Shown piece by piece: positions 4,458 through 40,684 of a DNA stretch of 64,000 nt; position 1 is the first letter of the stretch, and each line of letters starts with the position of its first letter. Both the position numbers and the translations under genes were made by a program. Location of the stretch: the NCBI RefSeq assembly GCF_947631165.1, contig NZ_CANRKH010000004.1, positions 1 through 64,000 of the forward strand, given 5' to 3'. Origin of the DNA: an uncultured Dysosmobacter sp. Lineage in GTDB: Bacteria > Bacillota > Clostridia > Oscillospirales > Oscillospiraceae. The notes under the pieces are model-generated. The model was not told the DNA's origin and searched no databases. It saw only the letters and a program-made list of their open reading frames with translations.

Positions 4458-4560
4458 AAAAGATATGAGATAAACGAAAGAAAAGATATGAGGTAAAAGA
4501 TAGGAGATATACAGCGCTGCTGGAAGATATATCTTTTATCTCTTATCTTTGTCTTTAATC
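4458..4560. repeat. Intergenic inverted repeat, GATAAGAGATAAA family, copy 1
   Basis: AT-rich purine-strand left arm (repeated AAGATATGAGATAAA-like units) and a pyrimidine right arm (ATCTTTTATCTCTTATCTTT) around a GC-rich centre (CAGCGCTGCTGG). The same units recur at 26152-26221. It lies between ruvC and ruvA and would fold into a long imperfect hairpin in the ruv transcript. Confidence 0.7.
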
Positions 4561-26151: not shown

Positions 26152-26221
26152 AAGATAAGAGATAAAGGATAAGAGATAAGAGATATCCTTTCCTCTGAAA
26201 GTTATCTTTTATCTCTTATCC
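26152..26221. repeat. Intergenic inverted repeat, GATAAGAGATAAA family, copy 2
   Basis: Left arm AAGATAAGAGATAAAGGATAAG..., right arm TTATCTTTTATCTCTTATCC; the arms are inverted copies around TCCTTTCCTCTGAAAG. Same units as at 4458-4560. A small GCCGC-AAA-GCGGC hairpin follows at 26231. It separates tyrS from the ABC-F gene. Confidence 0.7.
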
Positions 26222-34829: not shown

Positions 34830-35515
34830 CATAGAGGATAAACGTAAGTATGCTAAGCCAGCGGCGGCAGGAAAAGTAAATCTTACGGCTTAGGTACGGG
34901 TTGGATTTCCCCACGAAGCACCTCTCGTTGCCGATGGAGGCGGTTCCCCGTTCGGCTCCGCAGTACCGTGTTGCCATCGGCACTACCCGATTGCCACTTA
35001 GTCCGCACTGCAATCCTTTTCCTGCCCGGTCAAGACAGCCTAGGTGATTTCCACCACAGTCCGTCCGCTTCTTTAGCCTCTTTTGCAGAACGGGTTTCAA
35101 AGGGCGATCGCAGTCAGTCGCTCTGGCCAGAGCTGCTCGCTGCGTTGATCCCTCATCCACCCGCCCCACGCAAGGCAGGCTACGTCTGCACACAGCGTTA
35201 CGGCCCTGCTGGACCGATGCACCGCATTGCAGGTTCACAATCTGCTTCGTACGCGGGCCGGAAATACCACAACGGGAGTACGTCCGCGCACAAGAGCAGG
35301 TCTCCACAGAAACAGGGTCGGGTCAAACATGCCATTGTTCATCGCCCTGAGTCCGCAAGCGCGCGCAGCGCGCTTCCCCCCAGCACCCACCCAAGACTGG
35401 GCGTATCAAGCAGGCACCAGAGGTTTCATCGATGTGCCCTTCAGAGGATTTTTAGGCCCTCCCTCGGAAACGGCAGATCTGACTAGAATACTGCGCCGCC
35501 GCTTAGCGTGATATA
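34830..35515 (-). ncRNA. ole: OLE RNA (ornate, large, extremophilic)
   Basis: About 690 nt without a supported ORF, GC-rich and full of stems, transcribed toward oapA. It has its own promoter (35525-35553). Near the 5' end GGCACATCGATGAAACCTC...GGTGCC forms a hairpin; near the 3' end CTAAGCC/GGCTTAG closes a stem (34852-34894). OLE RNAs of about 610 nt lie immediately upstream of oapA in the nusB/xse/ispA/dxs/recN cluster, exactly this setting. Ends are approximate. A search with the Rfam OLE model (RF01071) would settle it. Confidence 0.78.
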
Positions 35516-35553: not shown

Positions 35554-35597
35554 ATATACAAACTGTGAATTTTTTTGACTCGCTGGACGGCATCTGA

Positions 35598-35629
35598 AAA
35601 GAACAGCCGGGTCCCTTGGGACCCGACTG
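35598..35629 (-). terminator. Terminator of the surface-protein operon
   Basis: CAGTCGGGTCCC-AA-GGGACCCGGCTG, followed on the minus strand by TTCTTTTC; 31 nt after the stop codon. Confidence 0.85.
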
Positions 35630-35659
35630 CTTTTGTTGGAATGGGATCGACTGTACGGC

Positions 35660-38600
35660 TCACGCCTCCCCGCGCTTTTTCAGCAGGGCCAGAACAGCCA
35701 AGCCGCAGGCGGACAGCAGGAGGGCCGCCCACCAGACTATGGAGTTGTCGCCGGTGGCGGGAGGATAAGTGCCCTGCTGGGGAACGCCCGGCTGTGGAAG
35801 GTCCAGCGTGGGGTCGCCGGGCTCATCGGGCGTATCCGGAGTGTCCGGCGGAGGGGGCGGGGGATCGTCCGGGTCGTCGGAATCGTCCGGCGGCGGAGGG
35901 GGATCATCCGGGTCGTCGGGCGGAGGCTCCGGGGGATCGTCGGGATCATCGGGCTCATCTGGATCGTCATCCTTATAGTTCTTAAAAATCGCTTCCGCGA
36001 TATCGCCCGCAGGGATCGTCCCCGTATCTCCCTTTGCGGTCACATCATAGCCACCATTGCCGCTCTCTTTCACTGAGTAGCCAATATCCTTCGGCAGGCC
36101 GGTGGCTGTGGCGCTCTGACCGTGCTTCAGCTCAAAGACGGCTTCGCCCTTTTCAAAGGCCATATCGCCAAATTTGCCGCTGACGGACTTGTCGTCCAGC
36201 GTTACGGTGAAGGTGAACCGCTTGCTTCTGCTGGCCCCGCTGCCGGAGACGGTCTTGGAAACGGTCAGGCCGCCTGTTTGCGGATCATAGGTGTTGGTGA
36301 TCGTGATGGAGATCGTGTGATTTGCTTCATCCACTACGGCTTCGGAATATGTAGTTTGGAAATCTCCCGATATGGTTTCCTCCACTACTGTGTAGCTCGC
36401 AGCCGGGGCAGGCAGGCCGGTAAACTCTGCCGTCCAGCTGTTCTCTTCGTTCAAGACTACGGAATCCAGCCTCGTGTCCCCTGCCATCAAGTACACCGTG
36501 ATCGCGACCTGTCTGTTCTCCGGCGTGGTGCTCCAATCCTTTTTGACAGTGAGGGTATAAGTCTCATCTGGCCTGCCGATGATGAGGTTTCCGTTGGTGC
36601 CTATACCGCCGCCCCGGGAGGCACTGTTGCCGGTGATAGTCAGCTTCGCGGCGGCCTGGGCCGCAGCTTCCGCTTCATCGGTCACAACATTTTTCAGGGC
36701 AGTAAAGCCGGTCATATTCTCCGTGTTTGTGCAAAGCTCCTTGTAATTGTCTCCATGGCGGGATGTTGTGCCGTCCGGTGCGCCCAGGCCGAGCCCTGCG
36801 GTGTGGTCAGCTCCGGGCTCCAGCCAAGTGATGCCGCCGTCTTTATAATAGTGATTGAGTCCGCCGCCCAGCATCCTTTGATACAGGGTCATGGTCGAAG
36901 CAGTCCCTAAAGAAGCTACAAATGCGATATCATCTCCGGCCTGACTCGGCGTTTTGGCTCCACCTGCTCCTTGCGCGTCATTGTCATAAACGGCTCCGCC
37001 GTCCGTCACATAAACCTTGATATCCCCGGTCCGACAGGCCCAGATGCCGCCGCCGAGCGCAGAAGCCGTGTTTCCTGTGACAAGTGTATTCTCCAGGTAA
37101 AGTGTTATGCCCTTCTGCACGTAAATACCGCCGCCAAATCCATAAGGATCTCTGACGCTGTTTTGAGAGATTTCACCCGCCGTTATTTGATAGCTGCCCG
37201 CAGGTGTGTCCTCCTGACCCATGTAAATACCGCCGCCCAAATATGGAGCGATGTTCCCGGTGATCGTTCCGCCTGACATGGAAAACGTTTGGATTTTTTG
37301 CAAAAACACACCGCCGCCGTTCGCCATATTGCCGGTGGCCGTACAGCGGGAGATTTCTCCGTCCTGCAATGCAAACGTCTTGCCTTCACGGAAAAACACG
37401 CCGCCGCCCTGAAGAGCTGTGCAGTCCGTGATTACTCCGCCGTTCATTGTTAGTTCGGCCTCGGAACCATTCACGAAAACGCCGCCGCCATGTGTTGCAG
37501 CTGTGCAGTTATTAATGGCTCCCTCTTCTTCAATATTCAGCTTGCCCGAGCCAACTACGCCGCCGCCAAATTGAGCCTCGCAATGGCTGATGGTTCCCTT
37601 GAGGGTCACAGTGGCGTCCTCCGCGTAAATACCGCCGCCATTGTTGTCAGGCGCTTTGCATCTGGTGATCTCGCCGCCGTTCATGGTAAAGGTCGCATCG
37701 GCTCCTTTCACCCAAACACCGCCGCCGTTGGAGACCGTAGTTCCTCCTTCCACACGTCCGCAATCGGAGATTGTGCCGTCATTCATGGTAAAGCGATTAT
37801 GATCCTCCATATAAACGCCGCCACCGCCAAATTTGGCGGTGCATCCAGTGATGGTGCCGCCGTTCATAGTAAAGGAGTTCTCACCATTTCTCATGTAAAC
37901 GCCGCCGCCAACATTGGATGTGCAGGCTGAAATGGTACCGCCGTTCATTACAAATGCAGCACTGGACATCAGGGCGACGCCGCCGCCATTATAAATGGCC
38001 TCACATTTCGTAATTGAGCCGCCGTTCATGACAAAGCGGGAATTTGTTCCGCTCAGGTAGACGCCGCCGCCTTGTCCTCTTTGGCCGTCTTGATTATCAA
38101 CCTTGCCGCCTGTGATTTCACCATCGTTCATGATAAAAGTGGAACTATCCACCCAAACATTCCGCGCCTTAGAATCAACGTTAGAATCAACGTTAGAATC
38201 AACGTTGATTGTGCCGCCGTTCATGGTGAATTCGCCTCCGTATGTGAGGCAAACAACGCCGTGCGTCATATTGGCAGCGCTGCTCTTCAATTCGCCGCTG
38301 TTTAACACAAAGGAGCTGCCGTCGTTGCTGCAATTGACCAGACAGCGCACACTTTCTGCGCTTTCCGCAATGAGAGTCAGGGTATTCACATCGTCCCCTA
38401 ACGTTCCAATGGTCAACGACCCGCCGCCATAAATATTAAAACCGATCCTCTTCCCATCCACAGAAGAAAAGGTGATGGTATGCGTTCCATTGGATGTTAA
38501 AATGATTTCCTTATTTGTGACAATTTCTCTGGTTAAGCGCAAGTCGGCATTGATCTGAATCGTAGTAGGTGCATCCGGCGAAGCATTCTTAATCGCTGCT

Positions 38601-39013
38601 GCCAATCCATCAGCGGTATCAACTTCGATTACATTGCTTGCATCCAATGATGCCCCATTTTCCGGTTCTTCCTCTGGTTCCAGGACGCACTCGCCCTCGT
38701 GGCCGTCCGGCAGGGTGCAGCCGGCAGTCTTTGTGCAGAGCGCTTCCCCCGGCGCAGGGTCTGCGATCATTTCCTCATTCCTGGTATCTGCCGGGTCCAG
38801 GACGCACTCGCCCTCATGCCCAGCGGGCAGCGTACAGCCCTCTGTCAATGTGCAGGTCTCCGGAGACGTTTCACCTTCCGGCTCCTGCACGATATTCTCC
38901 GCAGGCGCGGTTATTTCTTGCTCATTGTCCGCGTCCTCTGCCGCCAAGGCCTTCACTGGCAAACCAGCCAGCAGGCAAAGCGCCAGCAAACTTGCGAATA
39001 TCCGTCTTTTCAT
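35660..39013 (-). CDS. Large wall-anchored surface protein (adhesin-like) with beta-helix and Cna-B domains
   Basis: 1117 aa. Signal peptide (MKRRIFASLLALCLLAGLPVKALA); two GCTLPxGHEGECVL repeats (about residues 60-110); a long right-handed beta-helix region with recurring (F/L)xMNGGxIxxCxAxxxGGGVY units (about residues 230-750); two Cna-B-type domains (YTLTVKKDWSTTPENRQV and GGLTVSKTVSGSGASRSKRF); an Asp/Pro-rich wall spacer (DDPDEPDDPDDPPEPPP...); and a sorting signal of PPATGDNS, hydrophobic span and KKRGEA. GGAGGGG fixes the start. It is the last gene of an island and probably under an invertible promoter. Confidence 0.93.
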   Translation of the reverse strand: MKRRIFASLLALCLLAGLPVKALAAEDADNEQEITAPAENIVQEPEGETSPETCTLTEGCTLPAGHEGECVLDPADTRNEEMIADPAPGEALCTKTAGCTLPDGHEGECVLEPEEEPENGASLDASNVIEVDTADGLAAAIKNASPDAPTTIQINADLRLTREIVTNKEIILTSNGTHTITFSSVDGKRIGFNIYGGGSLTIGTLGDDVNTLTLIAESAESVRCLVNCSNDGSSFVLNSGELKSSAANMTHGVVCLTYGGEFTMNGGTINVDSNVDSNVDSKARNVWVDSSTFIMNDGEITGGKVDNQDGQRGQGGGVYLSGTNSRFVMNGGSITKCEAIYNGGGVALMSSAAFVMNGGTISACTSNVGGGVYMRNGENSFTMNGGTITGCTAKFGGGGVYMEDHNRFTMNDGTISDCGRVEGGTTVSNGGGVWVKGADATFTMNGGEITRCKAPDNNGGGIYAEDATVTLKGTISHCEAQFGGGVVGSGKLNIEEEGAINNCTAATHGGGVFVNGSEAELTMNGGVITDCTALQGGGVFFREGKTFALQDGEISRCTATGNMANGGGVFLQKIQTFSMSGGTITGNIAPYLGGGIYMGQEDTPAGSYQITAGEISQNSVRDPYGFGGGIYVQKGITLYLENTLVTGNTASALGGGIWACRTGDIKVYVTDGGAVYDNDAQGAGGAKTPSQAGDDIAFVASLGTASTMTLYQRMLGGGLNHYYKDGGITWLEPGADHTAGLGLGAPDGTTSRHGDNYKELCTNTENMTGFTALKNVVTDEAEAAAQAAAKLTITGNSASRGGGIGTNGNLIIGRPDETYTLTVKKDWSTTPENRQVAITVYLMAGDTRLDSVVLNEENSWTAEFTGLPAPAASYTVVEETISGDFQTTYSEAVVDEANHTISITITNTYDPQTGGLTVSKTVSGSGASRSKRFTFTVTLDDKSVSGKFGDMAFEKGEAVFELKHGQSATATGLPKDIGYSVKESGNGGYDVTAKGDTGTIPAGDIAEAIFKNYKDDDPDEPDDPDDPPEPPPDDPDDPPPPPDDSDDPDDPPPPPPDTPDTPDEPGDPTLDLPQPGVPQQGTYPPATGDNSIVWWAALLLSACGLAVLALLKKRGEA
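38169..38204. repeat. In-frame 12-bp tandem repeat, three copies
   Basis: TTAGAATCAACG three times, encoding (NVDS)3 in the beta-helix region of the surface protein. Slippage would change length by four residues without loss of frame. Confidence 0.85.
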
Positions 39014-39130
39014 GTATTTCCCCTCCGATTTTCTCTCCATGTTTTGGGGCACGGGCCCCTGAAATTTCTATGCGTTCCGCTGTCAAGTAATGCCGTGCCG
39101 AGCGGCGGAGTCTGTCCTCTCCAGGGTGGG

Positions 39131-39691
39131 CTATCCATCGCCTTTTGCCTCCACAACTTCCAGGATCATGCGGGTCAGCTCCAAGGCACTGCGAAAGCTG
39201 GCGCGCCCTCCCTCCACAAACTCAAGGATTCCCTGCATGGAGGCGTTCTGCCGCGCGTACACCCGCAGCTGGAAAGTGGCCAGCTTTCCCCGTATCGTTT
39301 GCAGATGCTGGGGCTTCAGAGCGGGCATGTGCCGGTCCGGAAAAGCGGCTTTGGACGTCTCTTCCTGATCTGACTCCAATAATGTCCGAGGCCGGTTCCA
39401 CCGCTGCGCAAGGCCGGTCTCATCCAGAATAGACTCGACCTGAAACAGCATTTGATCCAGGCTGTGGAAAATCCGGGCATAGGAATAACAGTAAGTGTAT
39501 AAACGGCCCGCAGCCAGTCTGTTCTGAAAGCTGTCCACACAGATGAGCATCGTATGGCAGTAATCCGGCCATAGTCCGCCGCCCCTGGCGTTGTTTGCCG
39601 CGTTTGTGGGGAGGCTATGATCCGCTGCTTCGATCGTATTTTTGATCTGTACCACCTCCTTATAAAAAAGTGTACATTTATGAAATTTCAT
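39131..39691 (-). CDS. Hypothetical protein upstream of the surface-protein gene, start uncertain
   Basis: 186 aa from the ATG at 39691. A largely helical C-terminal half contains LYTYCYSYARIFHSLDQMLFQVESIL and GILEFVEGGRASFRSALELTRMILEVVEA. No family recognised. The start is unclear: a perfect AAGGAGG (39655-39661) is followed at 8 nt by ATC (39644-39646, giving IKNTIEAADHS), with no ATG/GTG/TTG at that distance, and the ATG used here lies inside the invertible segment. It is 117 nt upstream of the surface protein and probably co-transcribed. Confidence 0.6.
   Translation of the reverse strand: MKFHKCTLFYKEVVQIKNTIEAADHSLPTNAANNARGGGLWPDYCHTMLICVDSFQNRLAAGRLYTYCYSYARIFHSLDQMLFQVESILDETGLAQRWNRPRTLLESDQEETSKAAFPDRHMPALKPQHLQTIRGKLATFQLRVYARQNASMQGILEFVEGGRASFRSALELTRMILEVVEAKGDG
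39660..39685. repeat. Left recombination site of the invertible segment
   Basis: AAAAGT-GT-ACATTT core (39666-39679) with the asymmetric dinucleotide GT at 39672-39673. The 11-nt AAAAAGTGTAC is repeated exactly in inverted orientation at 39785-39795; extended arms agree over about 23-24 nt. Confidence 0.75.
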
Positions 39692-39788
39692 GTTTGCTAT
39701 ACATAATGGAAAAAAGGTGTTGAAAGAATGGAAAATTTTGTGTATAATACAAGTGAATCTTGCTAAAAATAAAAATTTGTAAAAGTAC
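39672..39788. other. Candidate invertible promoter segment (phase switch)
   Basis: 117 bp bounded by inverted crossover-like sites and containing one strong promoter. As sequenced the promoter points right, away from the surface-protein operon and against the recombinase gene (OFF). Inversion would move the -10 box to about 39712-39717 on the minus strand, putting a transcript start about 45 nt upstream of the AAGGAGG site of the operon (ON). The only adjacent recombinase gene begins 26 bp beyond the right site. Confidence 0.75.
39720..39748 (+). promoter_or_regulatory. Promoter inside the invertible segment
   Basis: TTGAAA (39720-39725), exactly 17-nt spacer, TATAAT (39743-39748). It faces the 3' end of the convergent recombinase gene and has no plus-strand gene to serve in this orientation. 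Confidence 0.85.
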
Positions 39789-39799
39789 ACTTTTTCGAA
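39776..39799. repeat. Right recombination site of the invertible segment
   Basis: AAAAGT-AC-ACTTTT, a perfect 6-bp-armed palindrome around the dinucleotide AC (39787-39788), extendable to 11-bp arms with 9 matches (TTTGTAAAAGT / ACTTTTTCGAA). Two-base asymmetric centres are the hallmark of small serine recombinase sites. Confidence 0.75.
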
Positions 39800-39813
39800 C
39801 CGCAGGGCTACTG

Positions 39814-40479
<666 letters not shown>

Positions 40480-40611
40480 CTATACCAGCGGCAGCGCGGA
40501 GGCTTTTCTTTTCCTGCCAAGTTCCCTCCGTGACAAAGAGCGGTTATCTGCCAGCAGCTCAAGATCCCCTGAAAAAACATGTTGTCCTTTGTTCATCGTG
40601 GGTATATATAG

Positions 40612-40645
40612 AAAAAGACCAGTTCGATCTGAACTGGTCTTTTTT
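40612..40645 (-). terminator. Terminator of the asp23-nusB-xseAB-ispA operon
   Basis: AAAAAGACCAGTTC / GAACTGGTCTTTTT with a 5-nt loop and T6; it closes the operon 40 nt after the ispA stop and so separates it from the island. Confidence 0.92.
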
Positions 40646-40684
40646 CGTGATCTGCTTTATTGAGGGAATGATCGCATATCTTTA

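What the first reader, a model, noticed from the sequence alone, without database searches (positions are those of the whole stretch)
39660..39800. Invertible promoter: candidate phase-variation switch upstream of a surface-protein operon
Directly visible: two inverted sites sharing the exact 11-mer AAAAAGTGTAC, each with AAAAGT-type arms around an asymmetric dinucleotide (GT at 39672-39673, AC at 39787-39788), as expected for small serine recombinases; a near-consensus promoter (TTGAAA-17-TATAAT) between them that has no gene to drive in its current direction; a perfect AAGGAGG just outside the left site; and a serine recombinase gene 26 bp beyond the right site. Inversion would place the transcription start about 45 nt upstream of the AAGGAGG site. 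Inference: the operon encoding the adhesin-like protein is switched ON/OFF, and the sequenced state is OFF.
Basis: partly seen in the sequence, partly recalled or inferred. Interest (0 to 1): 0.95.

Follow-up and report, generated by a model that had tools for sequence, protein, structure and literature searches.

The report
Self-flipping promoter beside its recombinase
A gut Clostridia bacterium carries a short stretch of DNA that a neighbouring enzyme very probably flips back and forth, turning a surface-protein gene on or off; relatives carry the same cassette in front of many different genes, and some of them are caught in the flipped state.

Summary
The window cannot itself be shown to flip, but relatives do. 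Of 170 distinct loci with a related serine recombinase and enough downstream DNA, 107 have an inverted pair in the same place, usually 26-bp sites with a GT core. Eleven of 15 chosen pairs of related loci have collinear flanks but an inverted segment, one with 121 of 121 bases identical; only 4 of these 11 carry a clear promoter. The promoter lies at a fixed distance from the core (mode 38 nt; window 38): 52 loci point at the recombinase, 4 away, 41 undecided. Cargo varies: surface proteins, TnpB-like proteins, DNA methylases, flagellins. In the window the cassette is inserted between ispA and the OLE RNA. Best reading: a modular, OFF-biased invertible promoter. I infer that the OFF-state promoter makes antisense RNA to its own recombinase. 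Weak point: no canonical start codon follows the AAGGAGG.

The parts
39814..40416 (-). serine recombinase, resolvase/invertase type (ORF opens at 40476; likely start ATG at 40416 behind AGGGAGG)
   Evidence: Pfam Resolvase E 2.7e-30; PDB sequence matches Sin, gamma-delta resolvase and DNA invertase; start
39775..39800 (-). recombinase-proximal crossover site (26 bp, core dinucleotide AC on + = GT on minus, at 39787-39788)
39660..39685 (+). distal crossover site, inverted (26 bp, core GT at 39672-39673)
39674..39786 (.). invertible segment between the two core dinucleotides
   Evidence: boundaries by analogy with the inverted pairs
39720..39748 (+). sigma-A-type promoter TTGAAA-17-TATAAT, pointing at the recombinase (OFF for the operon); end of -10 is 38 nt from the core, the commonest distance in the family
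39655..39661 (-). AAGGAGG ribosome-binding-type sequence just outside the distal core; the codon at usual spacing is ATC
39131..39652 (-). first operon gene, P0002 (173 codons in frame; start codon uncertain; no Pfam or NCBIfam family)
35660..39013 (-). surface protein P0003: signal-peptide-like start, Cna_B, DUF7601, PPATGD sorting-type tail
40611..40645 (.). hairpin with U-runs on both strands: likely terminator of the ispA operon and, on the + strand, possibly of an antisense transcript crossing the recombinase
   Evidence: fold z -5.3 and -7.2; not listed by the stricter scan
35577..40684 (-). whole inserted cassette (recombinase, switch, P0002, P0003) between ispA and the OLE RNA; ends approximate
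   Evidence: absent from 10 relatives in which ispA is followed directly by OLE-side DNA

Best explanation
The region is a self-contained invertible-promoter cassette. The serine recombinase just upstream cuts at the GT core of two inverted 26-bp sites and flips the roughly 115 bp between them. As sequenced, the sigma-A promoter points at the recombinase, so the P0002-P0003 surface operon is OFF; after inversion the same promoter reads into the operon (ON). Shown by comparison: the layout recurs, inversions between such sites have occurred in relatives, the promoter sits at a fixed distance from the core, the assembled state is strongly biased to OFF, and the same recombinase family fronts very different cargo genes. 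Inferred: that this copy is active; that the OFF bias arises because the OFF-state promoter makes antisense RNA across its own recombinase gene, lowering recombinase and stabilising OFF, much as fimE is controlled by the fim switch of E. coli (recalled); and that P0003 works in adhesion.
For: Sites, promoter and recombinase confirmed and above chance. Inverted repeats of score 15 or more follow the recombinase in 71 of 146 distinct loci, against 2 of 133, 0 of 136 and 0 of 146 in controls; in the wider set 107 of 170 have a pair of the right size and place. Core GT in 89 of 107, and both sites share the core dinucleotide in 104 of 107, with a centre-finding rule that favours such cores. Natural inversions: 11 of 15 chosen pairs; in L171/L181 121 of 121 bases are inverted inside flanks of 95-98% identity, and the outer half-sites stay while the inner ones swap. 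Promoter toward the recombinase 52, away 4, undecided 41 of 97; end of -10 lies 36-40 nt from the core in 41 of those 52, window 38. No + strand terminator met the criteria between this promoter and 41000, and a strong hairpin lies beyond the recombinase gene.
Against: No reads, second strain or experiment for this locus. In 86 genomes of the genus the window's switch DNA finds only itself and three matches of 29-41 nt, so its flipping is inferred from the family. 63 of 170 related recombinases show no such pair. Of the 11 inverted pairs only 4 carry a clear promoter (L075/L199, L153/L154, L231/L197, L082/L221); the other 7 have TnpB-like, flagellin or unclassed cargo, and 18 of 18 TnpB-cargo loci on the tree are undecided for promoter direction. 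The first gene lacks a canonical start codon. Antisense control has no direct evidence: a weak 5-bp hairpin followed by a U-run lies right at the recombinase's 3' end on the antisense strand (fold of 39755-39830), and a lax scan without a control found terminator-like places near the recombinase end in 10 of 52 loci and inside the gene in 39 of 52.
Confidence: 0.86

Rival explanations
1. A switch that is now locked: the sites and recombinase are recent descendants of a working module but no longer recombine here, and the operon stays OFF or uses another promoter.
For: Only one orientation is seen for this locus; the first gene has lost or never had a canonical start codon; no close relative of the segment was found in the genus.
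Against: Recombinase ORF without internal stops, both sites keep matching GT cores and a strong promoter stands at the family's commonest distance.
Confidence: 0.1
2. The recombinase is a resolvase or the transposase of a mobile element, and the paired sites are its resolution or end sites; inversion is incidental.
For: The closest solved relatives are Sin and gamma-delta resolvases; the cassette is an insertion absent from relatives; 19 of 76 tallied cargo proteins are TnpB-like.
Against: The sites are inverted, not direct; they bound segments found inverted in relatives with collinear flanks; a promoter sits at fixed distance in many segments.
Confidence: 0.06
3. The promoter's main job is antisense or regulatory RNA against the recombinase, and inversion to drive the cargo is rare or unimportant.
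For: 52 to 4 bias toward the recombinase; 7 of the 11 inverted pairs lack a clear promoter.
Against: Co-directional cargo starts close behind the distal site in many loci (that call looked at one strand only); relatives with a promoter are caught in the other state.
Confidence: 0.12

Closest known systems
fim switch of E. coli (fimE-fimS-fimA)
   Same: Invertible promoter in front of a surface operon; when OFF the promoter points the other way, and FimE and FimB flip it (passages of PMC2845655). That fimE lies just upstream, that the OFF promoter reads into it, and orientational control of fimE are recalled.
   Different: fim has two recombinases of the tyrosine type (recalled); here there is one serine recombinase, with GT-core sites and a segment of about 115 bp.
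Invertible promoters of Bacteroidales, Mpi-type serine invertase
   Same: Promoter inversion upstream of surface loci by a small serine recombinase (recalled); weak NCBIfam match to the Mpi family, 42.5 bits against a cut-off of 272.
   Different: Mpi acts on many promoters at a distance (recalled); here the own genome gives one match to this recombinase and one exact site pair.
Hin/Gin DNA invertases
   Same: 26-bp sites with a two-base core (recalled for Hin/Gin); a DNA invertase is among the solved relatives.
   Different: They need a Fis-bound enhancer (recalled); none was looked for here. Resolvase Sin scores higher.
Clostridial invertons (inverton group 139 in hCom2; C. difficile switches)
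   Same: Clostridia hosts; for C. difficile, flagellar and surface genes.
   Different: Group 139 (32 of 33 from Clostridia) is linked to tyrosine-type recombinases (PMC11892184 section 8). The C. difficile flagellar switch uses RecV (abstracts); cwpV's recombinase and RecV's class are recalled.

Membership tests
Serine recombinases of the resolvase/invertase group | N-terminal resolvase catalytic domain with RVS and DRLGR motifs | tested here: met
   Pfam Resolvase E 2.7e-30; motifs visible (motif names recalled)
Serine recombinases of the resolvase/invertase group | Small protein with C-terminal DNA-binding HTH | tested here: inconclusive
   About 200 aa with a C-terminal tail, but no HTH family scored
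Phase-variable invertible promoter | Inverted sites flanking a promoter next to an operon | tested here: met
Phase-variable invertible promoter | Both orientations of this locus occur | not testable with these tools
   No reads or second strain. Relatives: 11 of 15 chosen pairs inverted, 4 of them with a clear promoter
Phase-variable invertible promoter | Orientation-dependent expression | not testable with these tools
   no RNA data
Hin/Gin family DNA invertases | Fis-bound recombinational enhancer | not tested
   no search was made
Mpi-type master DNA invertase | Score above the NCBIfam cut-off and many target promoters | tested here: not met
   42.5 against 272 bits; one exact site pair in the genome
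IS607-type transposase | Score above the NCBIfam cut-off | tested here: not met
   21.7 against 110 bits

The most novel reading that the evidence does not exclude
A widespread family of cut-and-paste phase-variation cassettes in Oscillospiraceae- and Lachnospiraceae-type gut bacteria: one serine recombinase with its own invertible promoter at a fixed spacing, inserted in front of unrelated cargo (surface proteins, restriction methylases, flagellins, TnpB-like RNA-guided proteins), and made OFF-biased by antisense transcription of its own recombinase in the OFF state.
Probability: 0.3. Interest if true: 0.8.

Novelty: new variant of a known kind. Interest (0 to 1): 0.62.

Why it matters
Invertible promoters are best mapped in Bacteroidales (general knowledge). 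Here a serine-recombinase class in gut Clostridia can be recognised from sequence alone: 117 of 300 genomes drawn from the family have the recombinase at E 1e-20 or better, and it fronts surface, restriction-methylase and TnpB-type genes. The fixed geometry gives a rule for finding such switches, and the 52 to 4 OFF bias is a direct test case for how one recombinase can make a two-way switch lean one way.

Tried and rejected
Resolvase or transposon-end reading of the site pair: rejected as the main reading because relatives show inversion with collinear flanks. Trans-acting control of further sites in the own genome: no second match to the recombinase at E 0.001 and no further exact site. A conserved operon including the switch: rejected, since P0003 at E 1e-60 matches one other genome of 85 in the genus and there only residues 792-1016 (G050), and P0002 relatives mostly stand behind other DNA: 10 of 26 have two GTAAC words 12 nt apart upstream. 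Phage carriage: 12 recombinase relatives in viral contigs, 9 with DNA behind the gene, 3 of these with a switch-type repeat (L328, L329, L331); not followed further. Papers: the 2019 Science paper on invertible promoters is not held, so my knowledge of it is recall. The passages of PMC8777976 that I saw said nothing on fimE antisense, and PMC10939037 had none of the five terms asked. No paper describing this serine class in Oscillospiraceae was seen in the listings of ten searches of an open-licence library.

Full report
Observation. The repeat scores 19; none of 1000 composition-matched shuffles and no other of 277 tiles of the window reaches that. The site word occurs exactly twice in 3.16 Mb of the own genome, here, and this genome gives one match to the recombinase at E 0.001.

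The protein parts. P0001 is a resolvase-type serine recombinase, closest in the PDB by sequence to Sin, then gamma-delta resolvase and a DNA invertase. P0003 has a signal-peptide-like start, Cna_B and DUF7601 domains and a PPATGD sorting-type tail. P0002 matches no Pfam or NCBIfam family at E 0.1. Its relatives occur in 30 of 86 genomes of the genus. Of 26 such loci re-found, I count by eye 16 whose next gene has a signal-peptide-like start. At the usual distance behind AAGGAGG stands ATC; the first canonical start in frame is ATG at 39550, 35 codons in, which would cut off part of the stretch that relatives match. How the first gene is translated is therefore open.

Where the cassette sits. 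The OLE RNA (407 bits) lies at 34845-35515, followed by a gene I take for OapA (recalled) and dxs. In 10 of 29 relatives examined (L243, L245-L250, L260, L265, L268) ispA is followed within about 80 nt by OLE-side DNA, and window 35577 to about 40685 is extra; L241 has ispA followed by dxs. In the other 18 nothing of OLE, P0001 or P0002 was found in the DNA held, which reaches at most 1.5 kb past ispA; what stands there was not looked at.

The family. Of 300 genomes drawn evenly from the family, 117 have a relative of P0001 at E 1e-20 or better; in the genus 36 of 86 at 1e-40. I fetched 94 of the places listed, 80 loci from named genomes, 29 further short genus loci and 20 more regions, 18 of them at genus recombinases. 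In a first set of 146 distinct loci with at least 420 nt downstream, inverted repeats of score 12 or more follow the recombinase in 96, against 15 of 133 upstream, 13 of 136 further downstream and 10 of 146 shuffled controls; at 15 or more the counts are 71 against 2, 0 and 0. In the enlarged set (225 matches, 188 distinct, 170 long enough) 107 have a repeat of the right size and place; 63 do not. The site consensus is TTTTGAAAAAGT-GT-ACTTTTTCGAAA, with GT at the centre in 89 of 107 and the same core in both sites in 104 of 107. The centre was chosen by a rule that favours such cores, so these counts lean that way.

Natural inversions. I compared 15 pairs chosen from the segment matches. Eleven have collinear flanks and an inverted segment ending at the sites, three keep the same orientation (L080/L187, L231/L235, L085/L238), and one is complex (L151/L155). 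L171 and L181 are the sharpest: 121 of 121 bases inverted, flanks 95-98% identical, with outer half-sites kept and inner half-sites exchanged. This is what reciprocal recombination at the core predicts. But only 4 of the 11 (L075/L199, L153/L154, L231/L197, L082/L221) carry a clear promoter; five have TnpB-like cargo, one flagellin and one unclassed.

Promoter and bias. A first crude scan gave 40 segments with the better promoter toward the recombinase, 10 away, 46 undecided. A matrix scan of 107 segments gave 45 against 10, where Markov shuffles give about 6 and 6. In 40 of those 45 the -10 box ends 40-58 nt from the outer end of the repeat. Requiring that position in 97 loci with a recognisable core (10 dropped), 52 point at the recombinase, 4 away and 41 are undecided; the distance from the end of -10 to the core is 38 nt in 21 and 36-40 nt in 41 of the 52; the window has 38. 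The position window was set after seeing the data, on promoters most of which pointed at the recombinase, and related loci are not independent, so the binomial values printed overstate certainty. Without the position rule 45 to 10 remains. Relatives with 85% identical DNA over 901 nt are found in opposite states (L075 and L199), so the bias is not simply descent.

How it may lean OFF. In the OFF state the promoter reads into the 3' end of its own recombinase gene; the proximal repeat commonly starts 5-20 nt past the stop codon (commonest values). In the window no + strand terminator met the criteria between the promoter and 41000, though a weak 5-bp hairpin with a U-run lies at the recombinase's 3' end, and a strong hairpin with U-runs on both strands stands beyond the gene. 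Antisense RNA would lower recombinase in OFF and not in ON, which would favour OFF. Orientational control of fimE in E. coli is a precedent (recalled; the library showed only the reference). A lax scan for antisense terminators gave 10 of 52 near the recombinase end and 39 of 52 inside it, with no control, and does not settle it.

Cargo. One search took, on one strand only, the longest ORF starting within 700 nt of the distal site in 90 loci. I scanned 76 of these (14 left out as short, cut, doubtful in frame or close copies): 19 TnpB-like, 10 with SLH domains, 7 Eco57I methylases, 3 flagellins, 3 SPFH proteins and others. On a quick tree of 88 recombinases, with 35 of 85 inner branches poorly supported, surface cargo needs 18 changes against 20.0 when shuffled (as low in 78 of 500), so it is hardly clustered; TnpB needs 6 against 16.8 and restriction methylases 7 against 8.7. 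All classes together need 32 against 46.4 (as low in 0 of 200), so cargo as a whole does follow the tree in part. Cargo classes there are sorted by short sequence words, and 34 of 88 remain 'other'. TnpB-cargo segments invert (L171/L181) but show no clear sigma-A promoter, so their control is unexplained.

Known or new. Invertible promoters are a known kind. A survey of 1837 invertons in a defined gut community finds its most significant invertase link between a group of 33 invertons (32 from Clostridia) and tyrosine-type recombinases (PMC11892184, passages and section 8). I saw no description of this serine class in the listings of ten searches of an open-licence library, which misses most subscription papers. 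I call it a new variant of a known kind.

Noticed in passing
34845-35515 (-): OLE RNA (RF01071, 407 bits) downstream of the cassette; the insertion separates it from ispA, which it directly follows in 10 of 29 relatives examined.
   Followed up: partly
L171, L181, L165, L183 and similar loci: TnpB/Cas12f-like genes are the first gene behind an inverted pair in 19 of 76 scanned loci, without a clear promoter in the segment. Phase-variable RNA-guided proteins would be new to me.
   Followed up: partly
L095, L108, L109: Flagellin genes stand behind the switch; L095 and L109 differ by inversion.
   Followed up: partly
L075, L078, L085, L091, L159, L164: DNA methylases of restriction systems as cargo (Eco57I type by Pfam for L085, L091, L159 and L164; L075 and L078 look alike by eye).
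   Followed up: partly
L086: An rRNA adenine dimethylase-type gene (Erm-like by eye) lies first behind a switch, 235 nt away.
   Followed up: no
L009, L010, L014, L015, L016, L022, L024, L026, L027, L030: P0002-family genes without the switch have two GTAAC words 12 nt apart upstream (10 of 26 loci), likely a regulator site; a -10-like box follows in the six of these that were printed.
   Followed up: partly
4459-4550 and 26154-26221: Two dispersed inverted repeats sharing a TATCTTTTATCTCTTATC-type sequence, perhaps a small repeat family.
   Followed up: no
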